Assembly: GCA_014904985.1 (NCBI GenBank)
Contig: MU128955.1
Coordinates: 62,001 to 126,000 of the forward strand
Direction of reading: 5' to 3'
Length of the DNA: 64,000 bases
DNA from: Hydnum rufescens UP504
Taxonomy: Eukaryota; Basidiomycota; Agaricomycetes; Cantharellales; Hydnaceae
Position numbers and translations under genes: made by a program
Shown: positions 8,606 to 58,187 of the stretch, in pieces
Position numbering within the stretch: position 1 is the stretch's first letter
How the letters are laid out: each line of letters begins with the position of its first letter
Notes under the pieces: model-generated
Database searches by the model: none
Seen by the model: the letters and a program-made list of their open reading frames with translations, nothing else
What the model was told of the DNA's origin: nothing

Positions 8606-9924
8606 TGTTATGAGTCATACTCGTAACCTGCTTATGTATGCAGAATAACCAAGCCAATCACGCCATCACATGACCTTCCCCCTTGCCACTATAGAAGAGA
8701 CCTAATGGGCTTTATTTGTTTTGATCAGCTAAAATGTTATAAGGGGTTTGTTTAGAATGTGTTAGATGAGGACAGATCAGTTTTGATGGGTTATGTGCCA
8801 CTCAACTGTTGTTTTGTACTAGTTTTGTTGTTGGTTTGACCTTAGGACTCGAACACAAGACTCCAAGATAGATGCTCAGCACAAGATTTGAACACAGGAC
8901 CTTCAGATACTCCAAAATGCAGATAGCCAGACACCAAGATTTGAACACAAGACCTTAAGACACTTTCAAGACACTTCAAGACACAACTGCAAGACTTGAG
9001 ATTCAAACACATGACTTCAAGAATGGATGTCTAGCAACTCCTACTCTGAGGGTTCTACAACTATCCACTATTCTTCACATGACTAAGCAAGACTGACACA
9101 CTCTGATTCTCTTATTCCCTTTTATACTCTTCTCCTTGTTTGAGATACAATTATTCTCTCTACTAATGGGTACTTGGATACTAGGGTACAATGATCCTCA
9201 GGGCACTTTGATCCTTGGAGGGGACTCCTCTTCAGATGCTCCTCTACACTAAATCCCTCCTCTCTTTATACCTTTCTGAACCCTCCACATGACTCATCCT
9301 TTTACTAATCCCTTTATTCATCCTTTAGTCATGCTCACTAATTGCCTTACCAATTGTCTTACTCATCTCCCTCCTTACTAACCTCATACTAGATCACCTG
9401 TCCTTAAGTCATGTGCCAAAATGCGGACTTCCTTAGTAGAAGTGGTTATACTTCTCTTCCAGAGTTCAATGCTGGTAAAATGCAGATTTTTTTTTTTGAA
9501 GGGCTTAACCCAAGGGGTTTTGAGGCTTGAATGTTTTCTCTTCTACACCGCCATTGTGCCTTCCTCTTTCAGCATTTCCTATTATATACATCCCTCCTTT
9601 ATTCAACACCCCTTTATCCATAAACCCTTTTGATCTCTAATAGTATAAGTAGTTACCTGATGTACACTTGCTCTTTAGAAGATCGAGAATATATTGTCAA
9701 CCGATTGAACTCCACTCTCGCGATCTCAGTTATTGCTCACGACTCTCATCTTAAAACCTTTGCCTATTAAGTCTCAAGAAGCTGGTCTTCCTTGTACATA
9801 CTCGTCTCTCGTGACTTATGTAATCCCCACTTTGCGACTCCCTTGTCAATCGCCTTAAGGGCATTTCCTTGTATTTGATCCAATTACGTCATCGTATCTT
9901 TCACCTTGAGTACAACCCTTAACA
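8606..9924 (+). repeat. 5' LTR of Gypsy 1, split by a nested repeat
   Basis: Positions 8606-8687 and 9550-9924 together match the 455-bp 3' LTR. The intervening 862 bp is a foreign insertion. The LTR starts TGTTATGAGTCATAC, against TGTTACGAGTCGTAC in the 3' copy, showing C-to-T change at CpG. Confidence 0.9.
8688..9549 (-). mobile_element. 860-bp non-coding repeat family, copy 1 (solo LTR or MITE-like)
   Basis: It interrupts the Gypsy 1 5' LTR. In its own orientation it starts TGTAGAAGAG and ends CTCTTCTATA, a 10-bp near-perfect terminal inverted repeat. A second copy in opposite orientation is at 43,360-44,204. Flanks compared with the intact 3' LTR give a 4-bp duplication GCGG with one copy decayed to GTGG. 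The interior carries degenerate repeats of a motif like GAACACAAGACCTT. No coding frame. A solo LTR of an unseen element or a DNA MITE are both possible. Confidence 0.75.
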
Positions 9925-10976: not shown

Positions 10977-12766
10977 CTGGCCATAAGATCATATGCTAAA
11001 AACCCATGAAGCTCATGTAGAAATTGATGCTAAGGCCAGGAGCTTCGTGGGATAGCATTATCCATGAGCTTCATGGGAGATAGCATCACACTACACATGA
11101 GCTTCATGCGATAGCATTACCCACAAGCTTCATGGGATAGCATAGCATTACACATGAAGACCCACAAGTGTTGCTAATGCTAAATATGGTAATAATGTGG
11201 TTAGGGTTAGGGTTGGAATTGTCTGGAGTCTACCCCCATGCCCAGTGAGGTTAGGGTTAGGGTTTAATAAATTACATAATATTCTATATTTGGCAATATT
11301 ACCTAATTAATTTCCACATTTGGCACCATTACATAATATTTGATTACCTAATCACTTTCCATATTTGAACATATTACATAATATTTGATTACCCAATTAA
11401 TTTCTATATATGAAAATATTACATAACATTTTTATTACCTAATCAATTTCCAAATATGGAAATATTACATAATTACATTCCATATTTGGAAAGCCTTACC
11501 TAAGCTACCATATATAGCTATATTACCTAATCTAATTACATAACCAAAAAAGCAGAAATGGGGGGGGCCCCAGGGGGATTTGTTGAAAGCCTTGAGCCTT
11601 ACAGCTGTTAAATTATTGATAGGCAGTTTGCAAAACACATAGCATTTGGGTAGCTCTGACCAAATGTATGGTTCCACATGTCACAAGACCTTCCAGGGCC
11701 TGTCGTCTTTGTCGTCCTGAGCCTATGGCTGGCCTTGATGCATGCCCTTTTGTCAGTGACTGCACAGTAAATGATGGTTGGTTTTCTCGCTAACCTGTCC
11801 GGCCATCATCGTCTCCTGCTGGCCATTATGACACAATCGGAACTTTCCACAATGGACCAGGACACCCAAGCCACCAGCAAATCTTCCCACAGGCTCCACC
11901 ATGTAAAAAATTGAAAACTGCCTATCAATAATTTAACAGCTGTATATGTTCCTCAGAATGTCTGTGTGTAGGGTTGACCCAGTTGTGGGATGTTTGAGTG
12001 TCATTTGGATTTAAATGACACTCAAACATCCCACAACTGGGTCAACCCTACACACAGACATTCTGAGGAACATATAAGGCTCAAGGCTTTCAACAAATCC
12101 CCCTGGGCCCCCCCCCCCATTTCTGTGTTTTTGCTTATGTAATTAGATTAGGTAATATAGCTATATATGGTAGCTTAGGTAAGGTTTTCCAAATATGGAA
12201 TGTAATTATGTAATATTTCCATATTTGGAAATTGATTAGGTAATAAAAATGTTATGTAATATTTCCATATATAGAAATTAATTGGGTAATCAAATATTAT
12301 GTAATATGTCCAAATATGGAAAGTGATTAGGTAATCAAATATTATGTAATGGTGCCAAATGGAAAGTGATTAGGTAATCAAATATTATGTAATGGTGCCA
12401 AATGTGGAAATTAATTAGGTGATCAAATATTAGGTAATATTGCCAAATATAGAATATTATGTAATTTATCAAACCCTAACCCTAACCCTGGCATGGGGGT
12501 AGATGTTCCCAACCACACTCCAGAGAATCCCTAACCACCAACCCTAACCACCAACTCCAACCCCCAACCCCAACCACCAACCCTAACCGCCAACCATCCC
12601 CAACCACCAACATTATTAGTATATTTGGCATAGCATCACTTGTGGGTCTTCATGTGTAATGCTATGGTAATGCCATTGCACGAAGCTCATGGGTAATGCT
12701 ATCTCACAAAGCTCCTGGCTTTAGCATCAATTTCTACATGAGCTTTGTGGAGAAATCTTATGGCCA
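10977..12766. mobile_element. Palindromic insertion with telomere-like repeats
   Basis: The tips are CTGGCCATAAGAT at 10,977 and ATCTTATGGCCAG ending at 12,766. The arms pair all the way to a centre near 12,008 (AGTGTCATTTGGAT / TTAAATGACACT). From outside in, each arm has GCTTCATGGGATAGCAT repeats, a telomere-like block (TTAGGG runs at about 11,212-11,280; CCCTAA runs at about 12,475-12,600), then tandem AT-rich units around CCATATTTGGAAAT. A 341-bp MITE sits in the left arm only. No coding frame. The element occupies the place of about 2 kb of gag-pol, so insertion was joined with a deletion, or happened at a rearrangement point. Confidence 0.8.
11602..11942. mobile_element. 341-bp MITE with 28-bp TIRs and TA target duplication
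   Basis: The ends are CAGCTGTTAAATTATTGATA at left and its reverse complement at right, the pairing running to about 28 bp. TA flanks both sides (11,600-11,601 and 11,943-11,944). The opposite arm of the surrounding palindrome (about 12,070) holds the empty site AGGAACATATAAGGCTC, so insertion and its boundaries are proven by the sequence itself. TA duplication and a CAG tip fit the Tc1/mariner/pogo superfamily. It is non-autonomous; the pogo-like transposase at 24.8-27.1 kb is a possible relative of its source but no TIRs link them. Confidence 0.9.
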
Positions 12767-22801: not shown

Positions 22802-23647
22802 TGTCAGGGCAACACTGCCATTGAAGCCACAAACAGAAAGAGGAAAGAGATTAATTAACCACATGCTATTGCAGTGGGAATCCTGAGTATACACCACACA
22901 ACAAGGGACACACAAGTCTCACACCTATCACAGTGGGAATCCTGAGAGATCAAACTGGTGGTCCCCCAACTGTGAAGGGCTATAAATACTATTTCCTGCA
23001 CACAGCCACCAGCCTTCCAGAGCCTTCCACTGTCTTCCATAACCTTCCAGATCCTCCTAGAATGCTGGCTCCACAGCCCATCAGTCAGCCTCCACAGCCA
23101 CCATCACTAAGCCTCACTAAGCTGATGCAGCCATGTTACGAATCCTGTGCACACCTCCACATGGCTATGCCCCAACTTCCATATGTATCCCCCTTAGCAT
23201 ATGTACTTCCAAGGCAGTGTATTCCTGGGTACTCCAAAGGTGTCCAAAGTGTCAAAGGACTGTAATGATGTGGATGGAGTACGGATTGGGACAGGTGATG
23301 TGGATTCAGGGACTGGGGGTGGAGGAGGAGGAGGGGGAGTCTGGATTGGCAACTCCATGGACTCACATGGGGAACAAGGGAACAACAGGTGCTGACAAGG
23401 GCACCAATGCTGCCACTGGTTGACTACCCAGCCCATAGCCTGCTGGCCGAGGCCCAATAGAATGAGGGCAATAATAATAAGAGAAATGCCAACAATGGCA
23501 AGGATGACAATAACCCCCATAGTGAATGGAGGGAGAGAGGAGATAAGAGCATTTGAGGAAGTAGGCGCCATATGATAGAGTTGATGAAGAATGATACTCT
23601 GACAGGTAAGTCCTTAGGCAGAAGCAAATGTCAATTTGATCCTGACA
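22802..23647 (-). repeat. 5' LTR of Gypsy 2 (846 bp)
   Basis: On + it runs TGTCAGGG to ATCCTGACA, with a 7-bp inverted repeat TGTCAGG/CCTGACA at the tips. The whole length matches the solo LTR at 44,426-45,272 with scattered transitions. It lies next to the gag start on the minus strand, which sets its orientation. Short frames within are shadows shared by both LTR copies. Confidence 0.88.
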
Positions 23648-37450: not shown

Positions 37451-38060
37451 AGATGTGAAACAAGTCTTTTTTTGTTGATTTTATAGTACAAAGTTTTTCC
37501 AAATAGAGTCCAGACAGAGTAAGGCCTGTATTTACAAGTGTACATTGGTTTCCCTCCATTTTAGACTGTAATCCTTGTTACTACTGCAAATTCCAAAATC
37601 TGGTCAAGATGCCTTGCCCAGCATGCAGGGGGATTTGTTGATATGGCACATGAGAATCTGATGATGCAAGATGTGCCACTCAGAACCTTTCAATGAGATG
37701 CATTTGCAAAGGCATACCTTTGCAAGCATGGGTTCAAAGTCTTCCTGAGTGATGTGTTGTCGTCTCTCTCTCAGAGTGGGTACATTTCTCCATTAGAGAC
37801 ATACTGACCTTCCCCATAGCAAGACCACAGCCAAACCTGCATGGCATCATAGATATGGTGTGAACCACTGATCCTGCTGTTGTTGTTGATGCAAAAGGAC
37901 ATATGACTGTACAGTTGTACTTCATGCCAAAGATGTGTGTTTCTGAACATCACTTCTCCCCAGACAAGAGAACAAGACCATGACCAGCCTTGAGAGGGTC
38001 CATACTCAGGCTTTGTGACTGCAACCATGAGACTCTGGATGCAAACTGTGGCATTGGTTC
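37451..38060. other. No gene; contains a short segment duplicated from ~33.8 kb
   Basis: Positions about 37,957-38,008 (CTTCTCCCCAGACAAGAGAA and on to GAGAGGGTCCATACTC) repeat 33,826-33,877 almost exactly. A minus-strand frame of about 120 residues crosses it but has no recognisable motif. Confidence 0.5.
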
Positions 38061-39150: not shown

Positions 39151-40274
39151 TTCACACATCTGCGGCATTTCACTTGATCATCTTCTCTGCTTCCATCTCA
39201 CTGTGAGTATTCATCATTGTTATCACCCTCTTGTGGCAGGTTATTGAATGCCACTTCTCAGGCTTGCAACTGGCATTATACAAAACCACACCCAACTGTT
39301 GTCTCTATCCATGCCCTTGAAATCAGGTTGGTCAGTCAAATTGGGGACCTAATTAGGTACCATTTTGGGGGAAGAAAATGGTACCTAATAGGTCCCCAGA
39401 CAGTATGGCCAAAATACAGCCAAAATATGGCCATTCCGATTCATTTCAGCCATGCCATGGCTGTGCTAGATTATTTATTTATTTATTGTTATTATTATTA
39501 TTATTACTATAATTATATACATATTATGCTATATACATATTATCCCCCCCCCCAGGGTCTGCCACCACAGGGGGGGCATGGTTTCTGCAGGTCACACACC
39601 TGCATATACCCACCACACCCAAGTGGGGTCCATATGCCCCAGTCAGGGCCAGGTCCATTTGGGTGCTCCCTCAAGGGAGCAGATTTTCATTCATGGGTGC
39701 TTGTTTGTGGTTTTCATTTGCGGCACGTCATTCAGCAGGTTTGTGGTTGGGGGTGTACATGAGTTCTGGTTCAGGATCTAGAGAAATTTAAAATGAAAGA
39801 TTAGTTGAACAGTAATGGAGTGCAAAAAGAGCAGCTTACACTGCTCTTTTTGCACCACAAGAATAAAAAATAAGAAGAAAAAGAAAACTGACCTTGCAGT
39901 ACCCCACACCCACTGCAGCAGGTGTCAGGTACTGAGGCCCTGTACTCCGGCTCATATGTATGGTGGGTTGTATAGGTCCTCCCTGCAGTTTTCATTTGTG
40001 GGGGGTCATTTGTGGGTTTTGTTCCCAGCATGTTGTTCCATGGGTTTATGATTGGGGGTTCAGGCAGGTTCTGGCCAGGATCTAGAGAAATAACAATAGG
40101 TTAGTAAAAAATGAATGAATGCAACACAAAAAGAGCAGGTGTGGGGTACTGGGACCATACTCTGGCTCATGTACAGCAGTTTGTGCAGGTCCCCCCAGGA
40201 CCCTGTTGCTCAGGTGTCAATAGGTGGGGTCAGGAGGGGGGGTTGTGTTGGTATTTGTTGGTACAAGAAGTAAA

Positions 40275-40383
40275 GACCTATAATAGAAAATTATAAATTA
40301 GTTAAGAATTAAGGACCACACAAAAAGAGCAGCTTTCACTGCTCTTTTTGCATGGTTGTAGCTACAGGGGCAGTGACTCACCT
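40275..40383 (-). other. Intron-like unit on minus strand (left half)
   Basis: Reading leftwards: donor AAG|GTGAGT at about 40,382, hairpin at about 40,319-40,353, TTAACTAAT branch, acceptor TTATAG near 40,275. A sister unit lies at about 40,882-40,783 with TACTAAC at 40,798-40,804. Further ones end near 40,085 (TACTAAC at 40,100-40,106) and 39,778. Confidence 0.6.
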
Positions 40384-41042
40384 TAAATAGGACTACACAC
40401 CCACCATGGTGGGTGTGTGGTTCCTGGGGCCCTCATATGGTGCAGTCATGTCCTTGTTTGGCATGTTACCATATGTCACATCCTCATTTGGTGCATTGCC
40501 ATCTATCGCATCATTTGGCATTGCCATGTATTGTGCCATTTGGCATGTTTCCATGTGTTGTGTCGTTGGTGTGGTGCTGTGTGTCGTGTCATTGGCATGG
40601 TGCCATGTGTCGCATTGTGGGCATGGTGCCATATGTCACATTGTTGGTGCTGTGCCATATGTCATGTGGTGAGCGCATTGCCATATGTCACGTCATTTGG
40701 GGTGTCTTTGTTCAGGGCATTGCCATTTGGGCCCTTGTTTCACAGGTTTTCATTGTGCCTTAGACCCCAGGTCTCACTCTAGAAGAATACAAGATATGTT
40801 AGTAAAAAGATTCAAAGAGGCACAAAAAGAGCAACTTCACTGCTCTTTTTGCACTGTTGTATCTACAAGCAAAAAAAACTCACCTTATGACCACACACCT
40901 GCTGTGGTGGGTGTGTGGTTGCACGCTTGCCTTTTCAGGTGGTTTGTTGTTGTGGTTGCAGAGATGAAAAAGAAGATGCAAAATTCAACACCAGCAATTG
41001 CCGATACTCAAGAAGCACCCAAGTGCTGGCACCGCAAGCACA

Positions 41043-41570
41043 GTACACAATAGTAGCAAGCATGTAGATATGGAATAGATAATATATAATAAATATTTAT
41101 CCAATAAAATGCAAAGAAGAAGAAAATAATGAGTCAGAGCTCAATAAGGCATGAGATGGCTAATTGCAGAGTGGATTGGGCCACTTCTATGCATCAGAAT
41201 TGGCCCAAATTTAAATATAGTAATGTTATATATACACTCTACATGGGTGATTGATTATCTCAGATGATTCTCACATTTTTCAAATTTTCATGCCTTCAAT
41301 TCCCTATTTAGGGAATTGAAGGCATGAAAATTTGAAAAATGTGAGAATCATCTGAGATAATCAATCACCCATGTAGAGTGTATATATAACATTACTATAT
41401 TTAAATTTGGGCCAATTCTGATGCATAGAAGTGGCCCAATCCACTCTGCAATTAGCCATCTCATGCCTTATTGAGCTCTGACTCATTATTTTCTTCTTCT
41501 TCGCATTTTATTGGATAAATATTTATTATATATTATCTATTCCATATCTACATGCTTGCTATTGATGTGT
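41043..41570. repeat. Central palindrome of the foldback element
   Basis: About 260-bp arms meet around a six-base loop TATTTA at 41,305-41,310 (AATTCCC / GGGAATT). Arms are nearly identical, more so than the outer units, suggesting correction between arms or recent origin. Confidence 0.9.
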
Positions 41571-41782
41571 GCTGTGCTTGTAGCACCAGCACTTGGGTGC
41601 TTCCCAAGTATTGGCAATTGCTGGCATTGAATTTTGCAACTACACAGCCACACCCAGCAACAGAAAGGCAACTGCACAACCACAACACAACACCAACAGC
41701 AACAGCAGAAACAGCAGCAGCCCTAGTGCATGACCACGACCACATGACCACACACCTGCTGAGGTGGGTGCATGGTCATAAG

Positions 41783-41886
41783 GTAAGTTTTGTCTCAATA
41801 CATACAATAGTGCAAAAAGAGTAGCACAAGCTACTCTTTTTGTACTGCTGTGAATTTTTATACTAACATAGCCTTTATTATTCCAG
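41783..41886 (+). other. Intron-like unit R0
   Basis: Donor AAG|GTAAGT, hairpin at 41,811-41,844 (TGCAAAAAGAGTAGC with GCTACTCTTTTTGTA), branch site TACTAAC at 41,861-41,867, acceptor TTATTCCAG ending 41,886. Length 104 bp. Confidence 0.65.
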
Positions 41887-42096
41887 ACCAAAACCAAAAC
41901 AAATGACAGGCTGCCCAATGAGTGGCCTGGGCCCCAGTGGAAATATGCAAAACCATGTGAAACAAAATGAAATGAAGCCAAATGAAACCATGCCCAACCC
42001 CCACACCACACCCAACAAAACAATGCCAAGTGAAAACATGAGAGGTGGCCATGTGAACCACACACCCACTGCAGCAGGTGTGTGGTTCTATACAAT

Positions 42097-42195
42097 GTAA
42101 GTAATCTTGTGCACCCCCAGTGGTGCAAAAAGAGCAGCAAATGCTGCTCTTTTTGTGCTGGTTTTAATTTTTTAACTGATAATGTTTTATTCTAG
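42097..42195 (+). other. Intron-like unit R1
   Basis: Donor GTAAGTAATC, hairpin at 42,124-42,155 (GCAAAAAGAGCAGC with GCTGCTCTTTTTG), CTGAT-type branch near 42,172, acceptor TTATTCTAG. A close relative (R2) spans about 42,333-42,441 but has AT instead of GT at the donor. Confidence 0.6.
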
Positions 42196-42607
42196 GTATC
42201 ACCACAAATGAAGACCCATGGAGTGAGCCCCTTGAGATCAAACTCCCACAAAACGAGACCCATGAGTGACAATGTGCCAAATGAAGACATGAACCACACA
42301 CCTGCTACTGCGGGTGTGTGGTTCTATACAAGATAAGTAATTAGTGCACCCCCCCCCCCTCACCAACACAAAAAGAGCAGCCCTTGCTGCTCTTTTTGCA
42401 TTTGTTTTAATTTTTAACTAATAAATTCTCTATTATTCTAGGCTGTTGCCTGAACCACCCACCAAACAAACCCCCTCTCCACAAAATGACAATGCAACAT
42501 GCCAAGGAACACCCCCCAGATGAAACCCGGGACCAAGAACACACAACAGGGCCACAGGGACCCCAGATGAACCACACCCACTTCAGCGGGTGTGTGATAA
42601 TTCTAAG

Positions 42608-42698
42608 GTAAATACAACCATGCAAAAGGAGCAGCATATGCTGCTCCTTTTGTGTGGCTCTTCTTTTTTTTTTTTTACTAACATATTTACTATTCTAG
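42608..42698 (+). other. Intron-like unit R3
   Basis: Donor AAG|GTAAAT, hairpin 42,621-42,652 (GCAAAAGGAGCAGC with GCTGCTCCTTTTG), TACTAAC at 42,676-42,682, acceptor CTATTCTAG. Units R4 and R5 start at 42,873 and 43,130 (GTGAGTAC) with TACTAAC at 42,944 and 43,200 but have lost a clear AG. Confidence 0.65.
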
Positions 42699-43359
42699 AT
42701 GGTCAAGCAAAATGACAACCTGCCAAACAAACCCACCCAACACCCCCCTGGGAATGATGATGCAACCCACCAAAACAACACATGCCAAACAAAACATGCC
42801 AATGACAACTGGCCAGACCAAACCCAAGAGAGTACCACACACCCACTTCAGCAGGTGTGTGGTAATTTTAAGGTGAGTACAACCATGCAAGAGGAGCAGC
42901 ATACGCTGCTCCTTTTGTGTGGCTTCTCTTGTTTTTTTTTTTTTACTAACATATTATTTATTATTTTATTTTGTCATCTGGACCCAACACCTGCAACCCT
43001 GCTGAATGAACACAAGAGAATGACAACCCACCTGCCAAATGAATCCCACAAACAGCAACAAGTCAAAACCACAATGCAAGCCCCAGACGAACCCCACACC
43101 TGCTTCAGCAGGTGTGTGGTAATTTTAAGGTGAGTACAACCACACAAGAGGACAGCATACACTGCTCCTTTTGTGTGGCTTTCCTTGTTTTTTTTTTTTT
43201 ACTAACACATTATTTATTATTTTATTTTGTCATTTGGACCCAACACCCATGACCCTGCCAAACAAACACAGGAGAATGATGACCCACCCACCAAATGAAT
43301 CCTGTGAACAGCAACAAGTCGAAACCATGATGCAAGCCCTGGATGAACCCTACACCCAC

Positions 43360-44204
43360 TGTAGAAGAGAAAATGTTCTGGCCTCAAAAACCCCTTGGTT
43401 AAAGCCCTTCAAGAAAATCTGCGTTTTCCCAGCATTGAACTCTGGAAGAGAAGTATAACCACTTATACTAAGGAAGTCCGCATTTTGGCACATGACTTAA
43501 GGGCAGGTGATCTAGCAAGAGGTTAGTAAGGAGGGAGATGAGTAAGACAATTGATAAGGTGATTAGTGAGCATGACTAAAGGGTGAGTAAGGGGATTAGT
43601 AAGAGGATGAGTCATGTGGAGGATTTAGAAAGGTATAAAGAGAGGGGGATTTAGTGCAGGAAGGGCATCTGAAGAGGAGTCCCCTCCAAGGATCAAAGTG
43701 CCCTGAGGATCATTGTACCCTAGTATCCAAGTACCCATTAGTAGAGGGAATAATAGTATCTCGAACAAGGAGAAGAGTATAAAAGGGAATAAGAGAATCA
43801 GAGTGTGTCAGTCTTGCTTAGTCATGTGAAGTATAGTGGATAGTTGTAGAACCCAGTTGCTAGACATCCATTCTCAAAGTTGTGTGTTTGAATCCTGAGT
43901 CTTGCAGTTGTGTCTTGAAGTGTCTTGGAAGTGTCTTGAGGTCTTGTGTTCGAATATTGGTATCTTGCTATCCATGTTTTGGAGTATCTGAAGGTCCTGT
44001 GTTCAAATCTTGTGCTGAGCATCTATCTTGGAGTCTTGTGTTCGAGTCCTAATGTCAAACCAACAATGAAACTAGTACAAAACAACAGTTGAGTGGCACA
44101 TAACCCATCGAAACTGATCTGTCCTCATCTAACACATTCTAAACAAACAACTTATAACATTTAAAACTGATCAAAACAAATAAATCCCATTAGGTCTCTT
44201 CCAT
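43360..44204 (+). mobile_element. 860-bp non-coding repeat family, copy 2
   Basis: It starts TGTAGAAGAGAAAATG and ends GGTCTCTTCCATA, the reverse orientation of copy 1 at 8,688-9,549. It splits an exon palindrome of the foldback element: CCAC before and CCGC after form a 4-bp duplication (one C lost to A at a CpG). Contains the same GTCTTGTGTTCAAATC-like internal repeats. No coding frame. Confidence 0.8.
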
Positions 44205-44234
44205 ACCGCTGAAGCAGGTGTGGTAATCTTTAAG

Positions 44235-44337
44235 GTAAGTATATATGTACATGTCCAACTATGCAAAAGGAGCAGCAGGGGCTGCTCCTTTTGCCTGGTT
44301 TTTCTTTTTTTAACTAACTTATTATTTATTATCATAG
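44235..44337 (+). other. Intron-like unit R6
   Basis: Donor AAG|GTAAGT, hairpin 44,262-44,294 (GCAAAAGGAGCAGC with GCTGCTCCTTTTGC), branch TAACTAAC near 44,311, acceptor ATCATAG ending 44,337. Its upstream exon-like stretch is split by the 845-bp insertion. Confidence 0.65.
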
Positions 44338-44425
44338 GTATTCTTCTGAACCCGCATCCCCCAACTGAAGCCATGACCCCACTGAGTGAAAACATGCGAC
44401 CATGGGTGAGGGGGAACCCCAATGG

Positions 44426-45272
44426 TGTCAGGGGGACACTGCCATTGAAGCCACAAACAGAAAGAGGAAAGAGATTAATTAACCACATCCTATTGCAGTG
44501 GGAATCCTGAGTATACACCACACAACAAGGGACACACAAGTCTCGCACCTATCACAGTGGGAATCCTGAGAGATCAAAACTGGTGATCCCCCAACTGCGA
44601 AGGGCTATAAATACTATTTCCTGCACACAACCACCAGCCTTCCAGAGCCTTCCACCATCTTCCACAACCTTCCAGATCCTCCTATAATGCCAGCTCCACA
44701 GCCCATCAGTCAGCCACCACAGCCACCATCACTAAGCCTCACTAAGCTGATGCAGCTGTGTCATGAATCCTGTGTGCACCTCCACATGGCTATGCCCCAA
44801 CTTCCATATGTATCCCCCTTAGTGTATGTACTTCCAAGGCAGTGTATGCCTGGGTACTCCAAAGGTGTCCAAAGTGTCAAAGGACCATAATGATGTGGAT
44901 GGAGTACAGATTGGGATGGGTGGTGTGGATTCAGGGACTGGGGGCAGAGGAGGAGGAGGGGGAGTCTGGATTGGCAACTCCATGGACTCACACAGGGAGC
45001 AAGGGAACAACAGGTGCTGACAAGGGTGCCAATGCTGCCACTGGTTGACTACCCAGCCCATAGCCCACTGGTCAAGGCCCAATAGAATGAGGGCAATAAT
45101 AATAAGAGAAATGCCAATAATGGCAAGGATGGCAATAACCCCCTTAGTGAATGGAGGGAGAGAGGAGATGAGAGCATTTGAGGAAGTAGGCACCATATGA
45201 TAGAGTCGATGAAGAATGATACTCCAATGGGTAAGTCCTTAAGTGGAAGCAAATGTCAATTTGATCCTGACA
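44426..45272 (-). mobile_element. Solo LTR of the Gypsy 2 family
   Basis: 847 bp from TGTCAGGG to ATCCTGACA, nearly identical to 22,802-23,647, with a perfect 5-bp duplication AATGG on both sides (44,421-44,425; 45,273-45,277). Inserted into the last exon-like stretch of the foldback element and later reduced by LTR-LTR recombination. Strand follows the orientation inferred for Gypsy 2. Confidence 0.92.
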
Positions 45273-45779
45273 AATGGTGAAGCGCGAAATAATGTCCCCA
45301 GTACCACACACCCACCCAAGCAGGTGTGTGGTGCTACTAGATAGTTGTTATTTTAATTTTTTTGTTCTTTGATTTCTATGGACAGTACCACACACCTGCT
45401 AGAGTGGGTGTGTGGTATAATTTTAAATAAATAAATAAATAATAAGAATGAAACACTGGACTCCTGAATGAAACCCTGCTGACCCAGGGTAGCATAAGTA
45501 TAATATAGTGATAATAAATAAATAATTATAAATGGAAGATATTATCCCTGATAAGCCTGTATGGCCTGCTGCAAGTCTGAGATTCTCTAAGTCCCAGTTT
45601 CAGCCAATTTTCAGCCATTTTGGCCAATTCTGGGCCAGGAGGTGAAATCATAAAAATGGCCATTTTGGCCAAAATAGTGATGGGACCTACTTAGGTACCA
45701 TTATCTGCCCCAGAAGTGGTACCTAACTAGGTAGGCTTAGATGACTGACCAAGGTGCTTGGAATCCTCTGATATCCACT

Positions 45780-48700
45780 CACCCCATCAAGGGAATAGCT
45801 CCCAATGCTCTCGCAAGTGTAAATGACATTTGAGCCCACTGGGAACATCACCCTCCCTATCACCATCCACCATGTACTCAAGTACACTCAACAAAAGCAT
45901 GAAGTTGTTTAAAGCTGTGATGGATTCTGTTTCAAGCATAAAGGAAACTGCTTCTGCCTGCAAGACCCCAAAGGCCCAGGAGAGTACCAGCCACACTGCC
46001 TACCCAAGACTACCATCAATGTCTATGCCCTCGCAAGACACTCATTCTCAATCCAGCATGCAGCACAGAGCATCTGCACTGGGCTCAACTTGGAAGTTGG
46101 ACAGAAATACTGGTACATTTGTGGCAGTTGTGCCAACAGTGCGAAGTACTGAGACATCCTGATCAGCACCCAGTGCCAGTATCTCTAAGCCCTGTTACCA
46201 CTGAAATAAGCAGCCCTCTGAGGCCTCTCATAGTGCCCATCCTAGTCCATCTATGTTTTCTGGGATTATCAAAGAGGGCTTGGGAACAGGTGGCAGCAAT
46301 GTTGGCTTGTCCCTAGGGGTGACTGAGCAGCCATTTGTCATTTGATATCTGATCCATGTGGGAGGTCAGAATGAACACTCTGTTGAGAAGAAGCTGTCTC
46401 ACCATGCATGTCGGCAGGCTGCTGCAGCACATCATTGGGATCGGGATGTCATACCTGCCTTGATTCATCCATACATGGAATACATGCACAAATCACAGCA
46501 AGGGCAGGTGCCTTTGGACTCTCCATCAATCCATTGCTCTTGTACTGGTCATACAGTGTTGAAACAGGTGATTGCTGTATATATGGATCATGAGTACATG
46601 GTTTATACTTGCTTGGACCAGAAACTGACCACCTTTGACTTAGGCCTAGACTATATTGAACTCTGCATTTGCCCTGCACACCTGCCCCTGTGCAGCTGGT
46701 GAAGCAGGGTCTATTTCCCTGCTCACCAGTCCATCCAGCCCTTGCTGTAAGCCTTGAAATGCTGGAGTTCATGTCCAAATTATTTGTGCATTTGGCTCCA
46801 AATGAGGCAGCATGGGCAGATATGCTAGTGAAGTTCTTAGCCAGGTGGGGCCATGTATTCAAAGCCCAGGATTTGCTCCATCAACAATTTGGTTCTGCTC
46901 TAGCCCAATACCAGGTCTTAGTGTGTGTTGTTGATGCTGAAATCAACAAGCAGATCAGTGTTGCTCACCATGAGGTCCTATCTCATGATCCTGCTGACTG
47001 GGACAATGTTGCTCCGGAGATGATAGTGCTGCCCAAGCTTGATGAATCCACACCTATAACAGCTTGATTGTATGTCAGTGCACATACTGATGGCCATTCC
47101 ATTCAGGAGCCCACCACTTCTACAATGAATGATCTCATTGAAGGAAGTGCAAATGAACCCACCATGTCATCACTACCCTTAGGCTCATGTAGTGGTCCCA
47201 ACCCTTGTGTTACTCCATCTGACTATCTTTGCTCACATTGCCCACTATGCTTTGGAGCATGTAACAAAGCTGGGGACAGCAAACTGTGAGTAATGCATAA
47301 TATATTCTCATGCTTGTCTTACTGATATACTGGTTATGTCTTTTAGTCCAGAGTTCTTCTTGTGCCTTGATGCATGCTTTGCCATCCAATGAAACAAGGA
47401 CTATGATTGTCATCCAGGCTGCAAAAAGCAACCAGGCAGCCAAGATCCTTGTATTATTCCACCAGGAACTCATGAACTACCCCAGAGCTTCCTGGAAGCA
47501 TGGAAAGCAAGGGTGGAGGCAGCACACCCTGCCAAGTCACACAACCATCATACTACATGTGTGTCTAAGAAGGGCGAGTATGCAGCCGATGTTTCAGATA
47601 CTGAGGATGACCATGTTGAGCCAGGGTTGCATGTCCCAAACTCATACCTTGATAGCTGTGGTGAGTCTTTCATGGCTGCTGATGGAGGGAGAGTGAAGAC
47701 TCCTGGGGGCACTTCTCAGACACTGGTGTGATGGCAGGTGTTTGTTGTCATGACTGAGTCATTGCCTGGGGCAATATGTGGACACCCGGCAAGCAGCAGT
47801 TCTATGCACTAGCCATAATTGACTTTGTTATGGCCCAGCTGCCTGTAGACTGGCGAGTTGGCATTCTCTATGATGTCGGCTGTCAAATTCACTGAAGTGC
47901 TCTCAAGTGGAACCTGGTACCATGCTGGATACCCCAAATCGTATTTGGGATTAGTGTATTCCATGCATATGGCCATCAGTGGGTATGCCAACTGTGGTAT
48001 CATCCTCAGAAAAGTGATGGCTGGGGTCTCACTGATGGAGAGGGTTGTGAGCATCTTTGGAGTGATCTCCGGCACCTCATTCTGAACCTCTGTGTTGCTG
48101 GTTTTCATTGCCAATTGTTCCTCTTGGATGTCCAGATTGAACACCTGGACTCTTCAAAGATGTGTGAAGCTGGTGTCTGGTTGGAGAAATGAGTTAAAGC
48201 AATGAAGGCACAGCTTGCTCTTGCTGAGGAGAAAAGAGCTAGGATCCACTATAGCAACAAGTATCTGCAGCTGCAGTTCAAGGAACAATGGGCCTATCAG
48301 AGCTGACCCCTGGAGCGACAATCAAAGAAGAAAGGCTTCCACGCTGTTGAGAAGATTCTATCTGTCCATCACTGTCTATACGTAGCTCAAGATCTTGTTG
48401 ATGTTCTTCAGAAGCAACTACTGTCTGTACCAGTATCAGACACTGTTGCCAGCCGGAATGAAATTGCGGAGATTACATCTGCACTTGTTGAGCAGGAGAA
48501 AGTTGTTGTTCAGCTGTCAAAACAAGATGATGATTTGATGGTGGTCCTCAAGCTGGGAGACCCCATGTCATATGACAATCTTATGAAAATGAAGGAGCAC
48601 CCTTGGTTTGAACACCAGCTCTCTGAAGGCATGTATCATTGCCAAGGCCTGCCAGAAGAATTTCAAGATGGATAATCTCACTGGTGCCTTCAGGAGCAAA

Positions 48701-49650
48701 GCTGTTGGTGAGCAACCTATACTAGGTAGAAAGCTTATAATATTTTACTAATTCGTGTTGTTATTTTAGACCACAATACAATGGAACATACCAGCAAGGC
48801 CTTGAAATGGCACTATTGCTCTGTCAAAAGCCTTGTTGTGGATTACAATAAACATTGTCAGAGCATGATCAAACTCCATGGCCAGCAAGGGATTCCTCAG
48901 AATGCAGTCATCCCTCCCCCCATCGACATCAAGGGCCTTTTCAACCTTGATGTGGACAATGACATCTGGCAGGATGTTGGGCTTGTGGATGACAAGTTTG
49001 AGGGGAAGGTGCTGCCTTGGCTTGGTGATGAAGATGTCTGAAATGGCATCTGACTTGTTCAAGAACTCACAAATTGTCATGATGAGCTTTCTCTCTGTGA
49101 ATGGGAGCTGTACTCATTGCAGCTTTGGTTTGAGGAAGAATCTGCAGCACTCATGGCAGCTTTGGGGGCTTGCAAAGGTGAGGAATTGATATTTCCATTT
49201 GTTGAATAATCTGCTGACATGGTCTGTCCTATAGGGGACCCTGATGTACATTTCCTCATGCTAGAGCATGTCCAGTGGCTTACAGACTTGGGCAGGAGGT
49301 GGGAACACTCAATTAATACTTTGTGCCCAACAGATGTATTGGATGGACTGGATGCACCTGATGCACAGAACACCCTCAGCAAACCTCAGTTGGATTGCAT
49401 GACTGTTTTAGCAGAACATGCTGGGATCCAACAACAGACAAGGCAACCTCTAGATGTTCTCCACAACCTGGATGCTGAGGAGAGTGTGGACAGCTCTGAT
49501 GATGGGGAAGACTTTGAGCTGGAACCCACTCCCATACCCAGGGATTCTGCCCTCATTGCTGCCATGGACTTGGTTGATAAGAATTGTTCAAGTGATGGAG
49601 GGAATGAGGTAGATAGCAGTGATGAAGAGGAATCTTCTAATGAGTTATAA
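45780..49650 (+). pseudogene. KDZ transposase, copy 2, near full length but decayed
   Basis: N-terminal region at about 46,380-47,060 has HHWDRDVIPALIHPYMEYMH and QGLFPCSPVHPALAVSLEML with FGSALAQYQVL, the conserved stretch before the cysteine cluster. CSHCPLCFG is at about 47,240, intron 47,286-47,346, then LCLDACFAIQ and an acidic linker. The core at about 47,730-48,300 has AGVC, ILYDVGCQIH (Asp), SVFHAYGHQWVCQLWYHP and LTDGEGCEHLW (acidic). An intron at 48,708-48,769 leads to the C-terminal exon (LKWHYCSVKSLVVDYNKHCQ) and a tail with SSDGGNEVDSSDEEESSNEL. TGA codons replace Arg at about 47,392, 47,756, 47,893, 48,190 and 48,303. It shares intron positions with copy 1. TIRs were not found. 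Confidence 0.88.
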
Positions 49651-49699
49651 GTTTTTGTAGTACCTACAGGTTTGTATGTGACCTTGGAAAATAATTATT

Positions 49700-50098
49700 G
49701 GTTTGAAGTTATTTTCCTAAGTTATTTTCTGGGGCCCCTAGTGGTGAACTTACAAAATGTATGGCCTTTGAAGTTGGTTCCGAGGGGCCCCAGGGGCCCC
49801 TGAGCTCCCTTGTTGATACCCTGAGGGGTCCCCTGGGGCCCCAGGCCTATATATCTAATTAGATGGTTTGAATGCAACTCTCATTGTATCTAGTTAGACA
49901 TAGATAATTGGCTGACCAGCCTGAGCCAACCCCCTAATGTAAAGGTAAGTATTGTTGTTTCTTTGGCTACAATTGCACAAGAAGAGCAGCCTCTGGCTGT
50001 TCTTCTTGGGTGCATGGGTGAGCCCACAGATGTATATAATAATGAATAATATGGCTAGGGGCCCCTGGGGGGCACCCAGTGTGAACATCTAGTTAGAT
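49700..50098. repeat. GGGGCCCC-rich repeat unit with the foldback-type hairpin
   Basis: GGGGCCCC-type palindromes cluster at 49,731-49,835 and 50,055-50,080. At 49,945 AAG|GTAAGT is followed by a hairpin GCACAAGAAGAGCAGCC with GGCTGTTCTTCTTGGGTGC at 49,972-50,012, the same plan as the units at 39-45 kb. A stretch starting AGATGGTTTGAATGCAA at about 49,862 recurs, diverged, at about 50,093, so this is a duplicated ~235-bp unit. Confidence 0.6.
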
Positions 50099-52160
50099 GT
50101 GATAAATGCAATGCAGATTATATCTAATATGATGGGGAAAGTGACTGACCAGGCTGTACAAAGCAAGCTTGGCAGCAAATCCCAATTATGTCTGTATCTT
50201 GGACATGCTGAGAATAAAAAAGCTTTCATGCTGTATCACCCTGAATCAAGGAAAATGGTGGAGTCATGTGATGTAGATTTCAATGAAGGATTGGGTGTGA
50301 ATGATCATGTGTCAATAAAGGTCCCAGATGGAAAAGAGGAAAGTGACAAGAAGGATGAGGCAGTAGTGGATTCAGGGGGGGAGAGTCTTGGTCTCAGAGA
50401 CCAGAGCCAAATTTGAATCCTACAACCCCCTCAGTCAAAAAGACCCTGGCCTTGGAAGATGATCCAGAAGCCATTCCATTACATCATTCTAGTTGCCAGA
50501 CCCTAGCCCCAGTACATGTGGATGAGGATCCATGGTTCAAGCTCACATCATATAACTGGCAAGCAAAACCCAGCTCCACTGGACATGAGGATTCAGTGGG
50601 TGACATTGTAAATGTCATGACTCACCCAGATGAGCCTACATCCTATGAGGATGCAATGTCATGACCTGAAGCTGAACTGTGGAAGCAAGCCTGTGCAAGA
50701 GAGATTGCTGCCCTAAAAGGCCTTGGAACCTTTAATGTATCCAAAAGGCCAGCAGATTGGTGTGTTGTCAGCTCACAATGGACCTTCAAGTTGAAGCATG
50801 GACCTGATGGAAAAATTGCTTTCTACAAGGCCTGGCTTGTTGAAAAAGGGTACTCAGAAGTCCCAGGAGTTGACTTTGATGAGACCTTTGCACTGGCCTT
50901 AAAGAAATCCTCTCTTCTCACATTATTTGCATATGCTGCTTAACACAACCTTGAAATAGAACAGATGGACATAAAGTCTGCATTCCTGAATGGGATCCTC
51001 AAAGAGGAAATCTATATGGAGGCTCCACCTGGCATCTCAATCCCAGAAGGAATGGTTCTCTGCCTAAAGAAGACCATCTACAGTCTCAGGCAGGCACCAT
51101 GTGAATGGTACAAGTGTATCCTGAAGATATTCTTGAAACTTGGCCACAAGTGCAGTGACACAGACCACTTGGTTTTCATCAAGAACCATGGTCAGATCAT
51201 TAACATTGTTGCCATGTATGTTGATGACCTACTTCTATTCTTGAATGACAAAAGAGAGATAGCAAAGACCAAAGTGGTGCTCAGAAGCAAATATGAGATG
51301 AAGGACCTCAGAAAGGCTTGATGGTTCCTCAGAATGGAGATAATCTGTGATCATAATGCCTGTTCCCTCTCACTCTCTCAATGTCAATATATCTTGACAA
51401 TTCTTTCTCAGTTTGGCATGGAAAATGCAAAGCCAGTTAGCTCTCCAGTAGCCACAGGCCTCAAACTTGAGTGCCTGGAATCAGCAACTGCCAATACCTC
51501 CCTATACCAATCTATGCTATGGTTGGAACATGCCTGGACATTGCATTTGCCATGTGCACCTTAAGTCAGCACTCCTCAGCCCCTGGCCCCACACATCTAT
51601 CTGCACTCAAATGAGTCTACCACTACCTATCCACTACAAAGGATGCCCTCCTTACTTTTAATGGCAAGACTGAAGAAAAGGGCCTCATTGGATATGTCAA
51701 CTCAGATTGGGCCTCAGACCCCATAGATTGAAAATCCATCACCAGATACATCTTTCTCCTTTATGGAAGCACTATCAGTTGGGCCTCAAAGAAACAGCCA
51801 ACCATCACACTCTCCAGCACTGAGGGAGAATACATGGCATCTGCTCAAGGCACTTGTGAGGCTCTGTGGCTCTGTCAACTACTCTCGGAAATAGGATACA
51901 ACATTTCCTCTCCAACACCTCTTCACATTGATAATCAGTCAGCCATTGCTATTGCATGAAATCCAACTTTCCATGTGAGATCCAAGCACATTGAGGTTTG
52001 ACACCATTTTGTATGTGAGAAACTAGTGGACAGCACTATCAACCTCATATATACCCCAATGGAAGATCAAGTTGTGGACATTCTCACAAAGGGGCTCCCT
52101 CTGGTGAAGTACAAGATGTTCTGCACAGCAATGGGAATCAGTGTTCCTGCACCCAGCTGA
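50099..52160 (+). pseudogene. Ty1/copia pol remnant: integrase tail, RT, RNase H
   Basis: It opens in the integrase C-terminal region (KLGSKSQLCLYLGHAENKKA, then SCDVDFNEG). RT has TFKLKHGPDGKIAFYKAWLV, MDIKSAFLNGILKEEIYMEA and YVDDLLLF at about 51,220. RNase H has GYVNSDWASDP, ISWASKKQPTITLSSTEGEY and LHIDNQSAIAIA, ending VDILTKGLP near 52,100. The family is certain from the order integrase before RT. Eight or so stops, nearly all TGA where Arg is usual (50,662; 51,319; 51,612; 51,729; ~51,957; 51,999), one TAA at 50,942. Gag, protease and the integrase core are missing at the left, where the 49.7-50.1 kb repeat sits. No LTR was found. Confidence 0.9.
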
Positions 52161-54944: not shown

Positions 54945-56727
54945 ATGGAAAACCACATCTATACCGGTGAGTTGCATTTCAATCTCTCGTCCCGCTCCTC
55001 ATCCTCATTAGTTGCTGCCCTCAGGTTCTGGCGGTCATACGGTAAATGGCGGCCGTGGAGGGGACGTCTACATCCATCACACTAATAGTCAGTCCCTCCG
55101 GTATTTCGAATCCTTGTCCATAATCAATGTTCTTCCAGACAAGCCAGGTTCTTATGATATTTCCCATTTAATGGCCCTTCCTCGCGCTCTATACGCGGCG
55201 CACGACTCTCTCCGTGAGGATGGACCATCGTCATGTCTCGAAGGCACTCGTGTTGGTGTATTGAAGGAGATTCTGAAATGGTCGGAGAATGCGAGCGGCG
55301 AACGGCCGCCTGTATACTGGCTCAGCGGACTCGCTGGCATTGGGAAATCAACCATTGCGAAAACCGTCGCCGAACGGGCGCAAGAGAAAGCCATGCTAGG
55401 CGCCACTTTCTTCTTTTCTCGAGGCGACAACCCTTTACGGGATCCAAGGCTCGTACTGCCGACGCTCGCTTTTCAACTTGCGCAATCAGACAGTGCGTTC
55501 AAGGAGGTCATCGTCGAAACCCTAAGACAAGATCCAACAGTCGGACGAAAGGGACTGTTGTCTCAGCTTCAGGAATTAATCTTGACGCCCCTTCTCAATA
55601 TCAACCCCGGGGGCGCCCACTACTTATCGTCCTTGATGCCCTCGACGAATGCGAAGAACAGGGTGCTGTAGATATTTTGCAACTGGTGTTTACACACCTG
55701 ATCCGAATTCCCTTCCTACGTATCTTAATTACCAGTCGCCCACAACCTCGCTTGTCCTCAGTGTTCAACAAGCCCCAGACCTGGAAAAGATGGTCCTTCA
55801 CGATATCGACGCATCGGTCGTTCAACAAGACATTCGCCTTTACATCTCCACTGAACTGGCTAAAATCCCGGAGAAACTCGACCTTAAGATGCCTGGTGAT
55901 TGGGCAACAGAGGCCGAGAGGGACTGGCTTATAGAGAAATCCGGGACGTTATTCGTTTACGCAGCTACGGTGATCCGCTTCATCGGAGATGATCGTGCGC
56001 GAGATCCTCCCAGACATCTAAGGCTTGTACTTAATACCCAGTCCCTCCGACAAGCTGGTGTGACACCGCATTCCGCAGCTGGATGAGCTCTACATGCAGG
56101 TGCTCCTCAACTTCCTCTCTCCGTAATAATCATCGTCCAATCCTGGAGAGATTTCAAATCATCGTCGGGAGCATCGTACTGTTACGCGAGCCCCTTCCAC
56201 TCCATTCGTTGGCTGAATTTGTTCAGCACGAAAGACAAGTCGTTGAGGGTATTTTAGTCATCTTCACCCAGTCATCATCCCCCCTCATAACATTCATGAG
56301 GCCCCACGCATCTATCACTCCTCATTTCTTCGAATTTATTACCGATCCGTCACGATGTTCCATGGTCGGAATTCGTGATTGTTTCCGTGCCAGATCAGGA
56401 ACTGCGACATGCCATCCGATGCTTCGGCCTCATGGCGACATATCTGAAACGAGATGTAGCTGGAATTCGGACCCGTCACTTCTTAATTGGGAAGTTGATG
56501 GATTTGTGCACAAAGTGAGAACTGCACTGTCTCCTGAGGTGCAGTATGCATGCAGGTATTGGGCATCGCATCTATCTCATGTTGAGTACGGAGAGAAGAG
56601 GATGGTGGAAGCACTTGAGGTCTTCTCAATGTGGTCAATTTTGTGGTGGTTGGAGGCAATGAGCCTGATTGGAAGTCTCTCCACCGCAGTGAGCTCAATT
56701 CAGGAGGCACACCAGTGGGCGGTATGA
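54945..56727 (+). pseudogene. NACHT domain of an NLR-like (NWD) protein, frameshifted
   Basis: Start MENHIYTG is split by an intron at 54,967-55,024 (GTGAGT to CCTCAG, phase 1) and continues SGGHTVNGGRGGDVY, the Gly-rich leader usual in agaricomycete NLRs. Then SSCLEGTRVGVLKEILKW and the Walker A YWLSGLAGIGKSTIAKT at about 55,315-55,365. Walker B LLIVLDALDECEEQ (about 55,628) is in another frame, followed by RILITSRPQPRLSSVF and, in a third frame, DIDASVVQQDIRLYISTELA. The helical part continues to 56,727 (RFQIIVGSIVLLREPLPLHS, YACRYWASHL). At least four frameshifts or stops, the first in a GGGGGC run near 55,607. STAND NTPases of this type are thought to act in non-self recognition; this copy is broken. 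Confidence 0.88.
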
Positions 56728-56734
56728 TCATCAA

Positions 56735-58187
56735 TTATTCATTCTGGGGTGGATGGCTGACTGGACAATGGTTTTTGATGACAGATAAGCTCCAAATGCA
56801 AGCCAATCATAGTTGCAATTCTCTCTGATACCCATCACTTCCTTCTTGTCCATGATGAAGTGATAAGGATGAGTGCACTACATGTGTATCATTCTGCATT
56901 GCCTTTCACACCACACACCTCTGCATTGTACAAAGCATATCGCCAAGAGGATAGTAATTCTGTCAGGGTGATCCAAGGTGTGGAGTCTGGGTGGCCAGGG
57001 AACTGGAGCAATTCACTTGGTCATGATAATGGCATACCCATCACGGAACCAGACAGCCATCCTGATTCAGTTACTATCATTGCCTTTTCACCTGATGGAT
57101 TGCATCTGGCATCTGGCTCCAGTGATGGCACCCTGTGCTTGTGGAATGTTATCTCAGGGATGCCCATTACAGAATTGGTCAACCATTCTAATTCCATCAC
57201 AACAGTTGCATTTTCATCCAATGGATCATGCCTGGCATCTGGCTCTAATGATGGCACCCTATGCTTATGGAATGCTGTCTCCGGGATCCTCATCATGGAA
57301 CTGGCCAACCATTCTAATTGCATTTTGACTGTTGCATTTTCCCCTGATGGATCATACCTGGCATCTGGCTCTGATGAGGGCACCCTAGGCCTGTGGGATG
57401 GTCTCTCAGGGATGCCCTTGCAGAACTGGCTGGACACTCTAATCCAGTTACAGCTGTTGCATTTTCACCAGATGGGTCATGGCTGGCATCTGGCTTTGAT
57501 GATGGCACTCTATGCTTATGGGATGTTTTGTCAGGGGTGCCCATTGCAGAAATGGGAGGACATTCTCATTCTGTAATGAATCTCAGATTTTCACCTGAGG
57601 GATTGTCCCTGGCATCCAGCTCCCTGAATTACAATCCACACTTGAGGGAGTTGGGGGATCCCACATCTGATGCAGTCACTCCAAAATCAGAGGGCCCTTC
57701 TCATTGGGTTTCAGAAGTTGCATTTTCTATTGATGGCAGTACTTTGTTGACATCTGCAGGTGTGGAGACCTTCACCTGGGATTTGCTTTCCCAACCTCCC
57801 CATCACTTACTCCCTGGCTTATCAACACCCCCTGGCTCCACTCTGGGTTTGACCACCATTTGGTCTCTTCATGGGAGGTGGATCCAAGTGCAGGGCCCTG
57901 AAGATGATCGCATCCGGCGTGTTTGTTATATACCTCCCCATTACTCAATCAAGACTCACATCCTCATGTCTCGCTTCCGGATTGCATTTGGATGTGATGA
58001 TGGCCGCGTGATAATCCTTGCTATTGTAAGTGACTCATCTAGAGGTTGGCTGGGGGAGCATACTATTGGGTGGATTCCCCCACCTACTGCGGGAATTCAA
58101 CCATCACCCTCATTGCCTGTCACACCTCACAAACAAAAGCATCCCTGGGCTTTCCCTAACATCCTAAGGAGGATATTTGGGCTCTAA
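56735..58187 (+). pseudogene. Linker and WD40 repeats of the NLR-like protein
   Basis: The linker SALHVYHSALPFTPHTSALY is the conserved join between NACHT and WD40 parts. Four WD40 repeats follow at about 57,075-57,580 with a period of 126 bp: SPDGLHLASGSSDGTLCLWN and near copies. The DNA units are strongly alike. A one-base loss in the third unit (near 57,420) shifts the frame; the new frame runs to the stop at 58,185 through a decayed fifth repeat (FSIDGSTLLTSAG) and a C-terminal stretch ending PWAFPNILRRIFGL. WD40 arrays in these proteins are the presumed recognition surface. Confidence 0.88.

What the first reader, a model, noticed from the sequence alone, without database searches (positions are those of the whole stretch)
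39328..45752. Foldback element whose two arms are arrays of intron-like units
Seen: matching tips (TTGGTCAGTCA), AGGT on both sides, terminal stem-loops, inversion about 41,307, and repeated units with donor, hairpin, branch site and acceptor on + in the right half and on - in the left half. Known: foldback elements carry tandem subrepeats, and introner elements create introns. Inference: an element that multiplies a splicing-competent exon-intron cassette outward from a central palindrome. I know of no described family with this plan.
Basis: partly seen in the sequence, partly recalled or inferred. Interest (0 to 1): 0.92.

Follow-up and report, generated by a model that had tools for sequence, protein, structure and literature searches.

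The report
KDZ-linked foldback transposon with intron-like arrays
A high-copy jumping element of a hedgehog mushroom carries two outward-facing rows of intron-like units around a central mirror-image sequence, and its ends resemble those of elements that encode a KDZ transposase, which makes it an unusual non-autonomous transposon rather than an intron-spreading machine.

Summary
True ends are 39324 and 45756. AGGT is the element's own end, not a target duplication. The duplication is 8 bp (CTTGAAAT/CTTGGAAT); 12 nearly full-length empty-site matches exist, and six of six read hold one copy. About 1.7 kb of the window copy is two later insertions. Donor, branch and acceptor occur together in 26 of 46 distinct unit types (shuffled mean 1.2, reverse strand 0). 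Both palindromes of the unit covary. All 150 scored units point outward. The 333-bp centre arms are homogenised within elements while the neighbouring intron is not. New here: KDZ-transposase loci of the same genome end in a similar tip plus terminal hairpin, 73-80% identical over about 85 bp to opened copies. I conclude it is a non-autonomous foldback relative of KDZ transposons whose arms are amplified, probably non-coding, spliceable transcription units. Splicing is untested. Introner-like lone copies were not seen in a small sample. My searches showed no description in print.

The parts
39316..39323 (.). left copy of 8-bp target duplication, CTTGAAAT
   Evidence: one copy at the six empty sites read
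39324..39338 (+). left tip CAGGTTGGTCAGTCA (CAGGCTGGTCAGTCA in the other fetched copies)
39343..39397 (+). left terminal stem-loop
   Evidence: alignable with KDZ 3' ends
39778..39892 (-). left-arm intron-like unit with donor GTCAGT
   Evidence: read from sequence and alignment row
40278..40381 (-). left-arm intron-like unit
   Evidence: fold z -5.87
40779..40883 (-). left-arm intron-like unit nearest the centre
   Evidence: fold z -1.47, not significant
40974..41306 (-). left arm of central palindrome (sense outward)
   Evidence: homogenised within element
41309..41641 (+). right arm of central palindrome
41783..41886 (+). right-arm intron-like unit
   Evidence: fold z -6.31
42055..42088 (+). 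exon-side palindrome (hairpin before donor)
   Evidence: covariation
42097..42195 (+). right-arm intron-like unit
   Evidence: fold z -3.26
42333..42441 (+). intron-like unit with defective donor (AT)
   Evidence: sequence; alignment
42608..42698 (+). right-arm intron-like unit
   Evidence: fold z -7.58
42834..43360 (+). two tandem units about 256 bp apart, donors present, acceptors lost
43361..44205 (.). later insertion, solo-LTR-like (inferred), about 5-bp flank duplication
   Evidence: relative at 8732-9547 on the other strand
44235..44337 (+). right-arm intron-like unit
   Evidence: fold z -5.00
44428..45272 (.). later insertion; found by itself in L014 and L016; relative at 22802-23251
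45303..45417 (+). two exon-type palindromes without intron hairpins
45682..45734 (-). right terminal stem-loop
45742..45756 (-). right tip CACCTTGGTCAGTCA
45757..45764 (.). right copy of target duplication, CTTGGAAT (one change)
46376..50156 (+). KDZ transposon body, in whose upstream part the foldback is inserted; its 3' end at 50142-50156 reads CAGCCTGGTCAGTCA

Best explanation
It is a non-autonomous foldback transposon that uses ends related to those of KDZ-superfamily elements and is most likely moved in trans by a KDZ transposase. Its body consists of two diverged half-elements joined head to head at a palindrome with 333-bp arms. Each half is an outward-facing tandem array of cassettes: C/A-rich exon-like stretch, palindrome, splice donor, palindrome, branch site, acceptor. 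Most likely the centre holds two divergent promoters and each arm is transcribed outward into a spliced, probably non-coding RNA. Arrays grew by tandem duplication of cassettes, and the centre is kept symmetrical by conversion between its arms. Shown: family, ends, duplications, empty sites, similar KDZ ends, outward polarity, splice-signal conservation, covariation, centre homogenisation. Inferred: transposition by KDZ in trans, promoters in the centre, actual splicing, non-coding nature, conversion as the cause of homogenisation.
For: 716 tips against 3 control hits. 8-bp duplication; 12 empty-site matches covering 181-185 of 185 bases at 92-97%, plus one partial at 89%; six of six read single-copy. 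KDZ loci L038 (C309, 729-aa frame) and L039 (C1, 981-aa frame) end in CAGGCTGGTCAGTTA plus a matching terminal hairpin; against opened foldback copies these ends are 73-80% identical over 85-89 columns (12 left and 8 right ends). Of 20 full-length hits at >=96% to that 85-bp end, 10 lie 1,561-1,605 bp downstream of a KDZ domain in matching orientation. Outward units 150, inward 0. All three splice signals in 26 of 46 distinct unit types, shuffled mean 1.2 and maximum 5 of 200 shuffles, reverse strand 0. Covariation exceeds all 2,000 shuffles for both palindromes. Centre arms: 96.3% within element (13 pairs) against 91.0% and 90.8% between elements, 0 of 20,000 permutations; intron 1 next to it: 75.6% within (7 pairs) against 92.8% same side between. 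Literature passages: Kyakuja of Laccaria has 7-bp duplications and CA..TG ends, Zisupton 8 bp; Cryptococcus KDZ1 8 bp, KDZ2 and KDZ3 4-8 bp.
Against: No transcript evidence. 5 of 10 copies with both tips show no duplication, so many are rearranged. The other (5') end of the KDZ elements was not found, so a matching pair of KDZ ends is not shown. Nine of the 20 best KDZ-end hits have no listed KDZ domain nearby and one is inverted to its neighbour (the domain list is itself capped). Comparing tip and KDZ lists over C1-C20 found only one KDZ domain inward of a listed tip. Several units have broken splice sites, and 20 of 46 types lack at least one signal. CpG-intact exons are more open than shuffles, so a coding past is not excluded. 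One of six introns folds no better than shuffles.
Confidence: 0.7

Rival explanations
1. The palindromes work at DNA level, as arrays of binding sites for the transposase or as cruciforms for amplification and recombination; the splice-like motifs are fossils of an ancestral gene with a hairpin intron and are no longer used.
For: Foldback elements commonly carry sub-repeats in their arms (recalled; Tm1 passages); palindromes compensate; centre arms are homogenised; some units have lost donor or acceptor; half of the copies with both tips lack duplications, as expected of ectopic exchange.
Against: Donor, branch and acceptor columns are among the most conserved outside the palindromes across 46 unit types, in one orientation only, with polarity outward in all 150 scored units; unused fossils should decay with the rest.
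Confidence: 0.3
2. The exons are protein-coding: each arm encodes a repetitive protein, and stops in the window copy come from CpG decay.
For: CpG-intact exons have an open frame in 77% of 35 cases against a shuffled mean of 42% (maximum 66%); stops are fewest in one phase at the donor (12, against 29 and 39, 18 exons).
Against: Those exons are not independent: under a rule that merges more, only 4 remain and 91 of 1,000 shuffles match. CpG-decayed exons show no excess (26% of 19 against 30%). Upstream of the exon palindrome the phase bias falls to p=0.04, and counted from the acceptor to p=0.14; exon lengths are unconstrained mod 3 (7, 6, 5); six homologues of one exon measure 210, 227, 229, 229, 230 and 230.
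Confidence: 0.15
3. An introner: single cassettes insert into host genes as new introns.
For: Intron with hairpin, high copy number.
Against: The three single-site places opened (C2:7606, C3:608581, C1:97101) were parts of arrays; tips and duplications belong to the whole element.
Confidence: 0.03

Closest known systems
KDZ superfamily (Kyakuja, Dileera, Zisupton) of fungi
   Same: CA..TG ends and 7-8 bp duplications as in published KDZ elements (passages); tip plus terminal hairpin alignable with KDZ-gene loci of the same genome.
   Different: No transposase inside; instead intron-like arrays around a palindrome. Cryptococcus KDZ1-3 are about 9-11 kb with transposase genes and 139-241 bp terminal repeats; Laccaria Kyakuja has none (passages only).
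Foldback elements: Tm1 of root-knot nematodes (Mutator), Galileo (P), FB, FARE
   Same: Compound inverted arms; transposase-bearing and other members; copies lacking duplications, one read as a crossover product (Tm1, abstract and passages of PMC3169594; Galileo from the listing; FB and FARE recalled).
   Different: Sub-units here are exon-intron-like cassettes with outward polarity, and the ends are KDZ-like.
Introners and introner-like elements of fungi and algae
   Same: Multi-copy introns with hairpins (the hairpin property of fungal introner-like elements is recalled; one search did not show it).
   Different: Cassettes seen here lie inside a larger transposon; ascomycete introner families are reported without terminal repeats or duplications (PMC9860276 passages).

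Membership tests
Non-autonomous KDZ transposon | ends shared with elements that encode a KDZ transposase | tested here: met
   3' end only: (73-80% over about 85 bp to opened copies; 10 of 20 best KDZ-end hits at a fixed distance from a KDZ domain)
Non-autonomous KDZ transposon | both ends match the two ends of one KDZ element | tested here: inconclusive
   5' end of the KDZ elements not located
Non-autonomous KDZ transposon | 7-8 bp target duplication and CA..TG ends | tested here: met
   5 of 10 copies with both tips show it
Non-autonomous KDZ transposon | moved in trans by KDZ transposase | not testable with these tools
   needs a mobility assay
Foldback element | long inverted arms built of repeated sub-units, able to fold back | tested here: met
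   beside the centre the two arms are only about 75% alike
Introner | single introns inserted at new sites in host genes | tested here: not met
   three single-site places were in arrays; a limited sample
Spliceosomal intron | donor, branch and acceptor conserved in one orientation | tested here: met
Spliceosomal intron | excised from RNA | not testable with these tools
   no RNA data held

The most novel reading that the evidence does not exclude
A class of transposon that amplifies working exon-intron cassettes as its cargo: divergent transcripts from a conversion-maintained central palindrome are spliced cassette by cassette, and the excised hairpins or the spliced RNA serve the element, for instance by avoiding or feeding small-RNA silencing. 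Borrowed KDZ-type ends provide mobility.
Probability: 0.35. Interest if true: 0.87.

Novelty: new variant of a known kind. Interest (0 to 1): 0.7.

Why it matters
It would be a non-autonomous foldback branch of the KDZ superfamily, with a body plan (outward intron cassette arrays) that my searches did not show. It offers a natural set of thousands of related intron-like units with covarying hairpins, in CpG-intact and CpG-decayed copies, to test what keeps splice signals in probably non-coding mobile DNA, and a many-copy system for measuring homogenisation of palindrome arms.

Tried and rejected
AGGT duplication: rejected. Rfam: 18 matches, each below its family's gathering score; those at the centre are microRNA precursor models, as a long palindrome gives; discarded. 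Protein coding: tested several ways, left as a weak rival. First covariation attempts were badly framed: on the exon hairpin showed no pairing excess because the regex end was off register, and on the outer intron-hairpin pairs showed only a small excess; on alignment columns replaced them. Its shuffles do not keep relatedness, and the anchor regex favours palindromes. The non-redundancy rule ignored gaps and left 4 exons. KDZ linkage by tip list alone suggested little association, because places were listed only up to C20 and KDZ tips differ in a few bases; fetching KDZ loci changed that. An 85% identity to foldback ends, taken at first, belongs to tips I did not open (for instance C14:179302); opened copies give 73-80%. 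A left border of the window's KDZ element at 37786 was tested and is only the end of shared sequence. Literature: searches (listings); passages of PMC12730594, PMC9860276, PMC12810828, PMC4457414, PMC3169594 and PMC7550596 and outline with abstract of the first; no paper read whole.
Full report
Setting. The window is G000:C47:62001-126000 of a 63.2-Mb, 539-contig assembly. A KDZ protein from contig C1 is 100% identical over 85% of its length to a protein of Hydnum rufescens UP504, and three listed proteins of that species lie on contigs as long as C6, C19 and C100 (539377, 426133, 215800); the identical protein's own contig (922706) is a little longer than C1 (919148). I take this to be that genome or a close version of it.

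Is it there? Yes. Repeat finding gives the centre palindrome with 333-bp arms (95%), 32 direct-repeat families and terminal matches. The region holds 19 hairpins, the centre included, in 6.7 kb against 12 in the other 57 kb. Genome searches give 237 matches to a two-unit probe (40 of 1,705 candidates scored), 42 to the right end (40 of 589) and 81 to the centre arm (40 of 598), mostly as adjacent inverted pairs. Exact tips: 357 + 359, control 1 + 2. Exact hairpin cores: 2,939 sites, control 0.

Ends and target site. Comparing 20 fetched loci with the window shows ends CAGG|CTGGTCAGTCA and TGACTGACCAA|GGTG, so AGGT belongs to the element. Of 10 copies with both tips in hand (L017 and L021 left out: adjacent elements, and a copy with two right ends), 5 show a 7-8 bp duplication (window and L020 8 bp with one change, L013 and L018 7 bp, L015 8 bp in a rearranged copy) and 5 do not (L014, L016, L024, L027, L031). 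Joined flanks of the window copy match 12 places over 181-185 of 185 bases at 92-97%, and one partly at 89%; the six I read all have a single CTTGAAAT. The target is an upstream part of a KDZ transposon: shared sequence runs from the target into the gene region that lies at 46376-49623 in the window, and three of the 12 places lie about 1.5 kb from a listed KDZ domain (C5, C90, C200).

Later insertions. Of the 20 fetched loci, nine join 43360 (or a few bases before) to 44206-44217 and ten join 44427 to 45273; none carries either insert there. In L014 the joins overlap by 5 and 7 bp. Without the insertions the element is 4,743 bp.

The cassette. Anchoring only on the two palindromes, 215 units were found in 21 sequences; a donor motif is present in 183, a branch motif in 204, an acceptor in 175 and all three in 144. 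They fall into 46 clusters at 85% identity. Outside the palindromes the median column conservation is 0.63, while donor, branch and acceptor columns are near the top. With stricter windows all three signals occur in 26 of 46 cluster representatives (donor 34, branch 38, acceptor 35), against a mean of 1.2 and a maximum of 5 in 200 base shuffles and 0 on the reverse strand. Five of six introns of the window fold better than all 200 shuffles; one does not. In the 15 sequences with a mapped centre, 150 units point outward and none inward; units outside the borders I set, and those in six other sequences, were not counted.

Palindromes covary. On the 46-row alignment, exon-palindrome cells pair (G-T allowed) in 81.8% (shuffle mean 76.3%, maximum 79.1%) with 33 double-changed cells, and intron-palindrome cells in 89.9% (mean 85.2%, maximum 86.9%) with 69; sliding the exon pairing by one column drops it to 30.5%. 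Some exchanges are transversions (A-T to C-G, A-T to T-A) and so are not CpG decay. Selection on a structure and DNA-level repair of palindromes can both cause this.

The centre. In 13 elements the two centre arms are 96.3% identical to each other, against 91.0% for same-side and 90.8% for opposite-side arms of other elements (arms under 290 bp dropped); 0 of 20,000 permutations reach this, and the own arm is the best partner in 9 of 13. Next to it, intron 1 of the two sides is 75.6% identical within an element (7 pairs) but 92.8% between elements on the same side (102 pairs). So the halves are old and distinct and the centre is homogenised, which fits conversion between arms (inferred).

KDZ link. 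A KDZ domain lies near a tip on C5. Fetching the C309 and C1 KDZ loci showed their 3' ends to be CAGGCTGGTCAGTTA followed by a terminal hairpin alignable with both foldback ends (scores 27-37 beyond the first 15 bp, shuffle maximum 5). Against 12 left and 8 right ends of opened foldback copies these 85-bp ends match in 63-70 of 85-89 columns, 73-80%. Searching the genome with the C309 end gave 41 matches (40 of 483 scored). Of the 20 full-length ones at >=96% (two more are partial), 10 lie 1,561-1,605 bp downstream of a KDZ domain in the same orientation (C309, C157, C67, C299, C131, C499, C300, C1, C424, C146), one (C191) is near but inverted, and nine have no KDZ domain nearby in the capped list. 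A further class of tips matches at 85%; I opened none of them, but C14:179302 is among the tips. The window's own KDZ copy ends in CAGCCTGGTCAGTCA at 50142-50156. The 5' end of these KDZ elements was not found.

Coding? The window copy is CpG-poor (observed/expected 0.13-0.14 in exons, window 0.30) and has stops in every frame, but other copies are CpG-intact. There, 77% of 35 exons have an open frame against a shuffled mean of 42%, while 19 decayed exons show 26% against 30%; with fewer, more independent exons the excess weakens, and lengths are not kept mod 3. I regard the arms as probably non-coding, at about 0.85.

Introner? The first 50 hairpin sites listed fall into 12 clusters. Three of the four single-site places were opened and are arrays; the fourth, C1:444892, is 2.4 kb from a listed tip and was not opened. 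I saw no lone cassette in a gene, in this small sample.

Known kinds. A foldback family with a transposase-bearing branch is known in Mutator (Tm1; PMC3169594, abstract and passages). KDZ elements with 7-bp (Kyakuja) or 8-bp duplications are described (passages of PMC12730594 and PMC12810828). In my searches (listings) I saw no non-autonomous foldback KDZ and no element with intron arrays. Verdict: new variant of a known kind, with an unexplained reason for keeping splice signals.

Noticed in passing
window 49909-50156: Two KDZ-type right tips 233 bp apart; between them a degenerate cassette (AAAGGTAAGT and an AAGAAGAGCAGC..GCTGTTCTTCTT hairpin), hinting that cassettes also rode with another KDZ subfamily.
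   Followed up: partly
L021:4265-5274: About 1-kb palindromic copy made of two right ends only, both tips of the CACC type.
   Followed up: no
L017:1-2400, L031, L020: CpG-intact arrays (observed/expected 1.09, 0.90 and 1.03 over spliced exons) beside strongly CpG-decayed copies: young and old, or differently methylated, subfamilies.
   Followed up: partly
L027:9187: One element appears inserted at the edge of an intron palindrome of another.
   Followed up: no
window 5072-8605: Large inverted repeat, 707-bp arms 100% complementary, with two further 318-bp arms directly abutting at its centre.
   Followed up: no
window 11249-12487: Telomere-like TTAGGG repeats at both ends of an inverted AT-rich repeat array.
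   Followed up: no
window 3233-3979: A second KDZ transposase gene (PF18758, E 1.4e-31).
   Followed up: partly
window 55012-58187: A frame with an NPHP3_N match, followed by WD40-repeat-like frames (WD40 recognised by eye), as in mushroom NLR-like genes (recalled).
   Followed up: no
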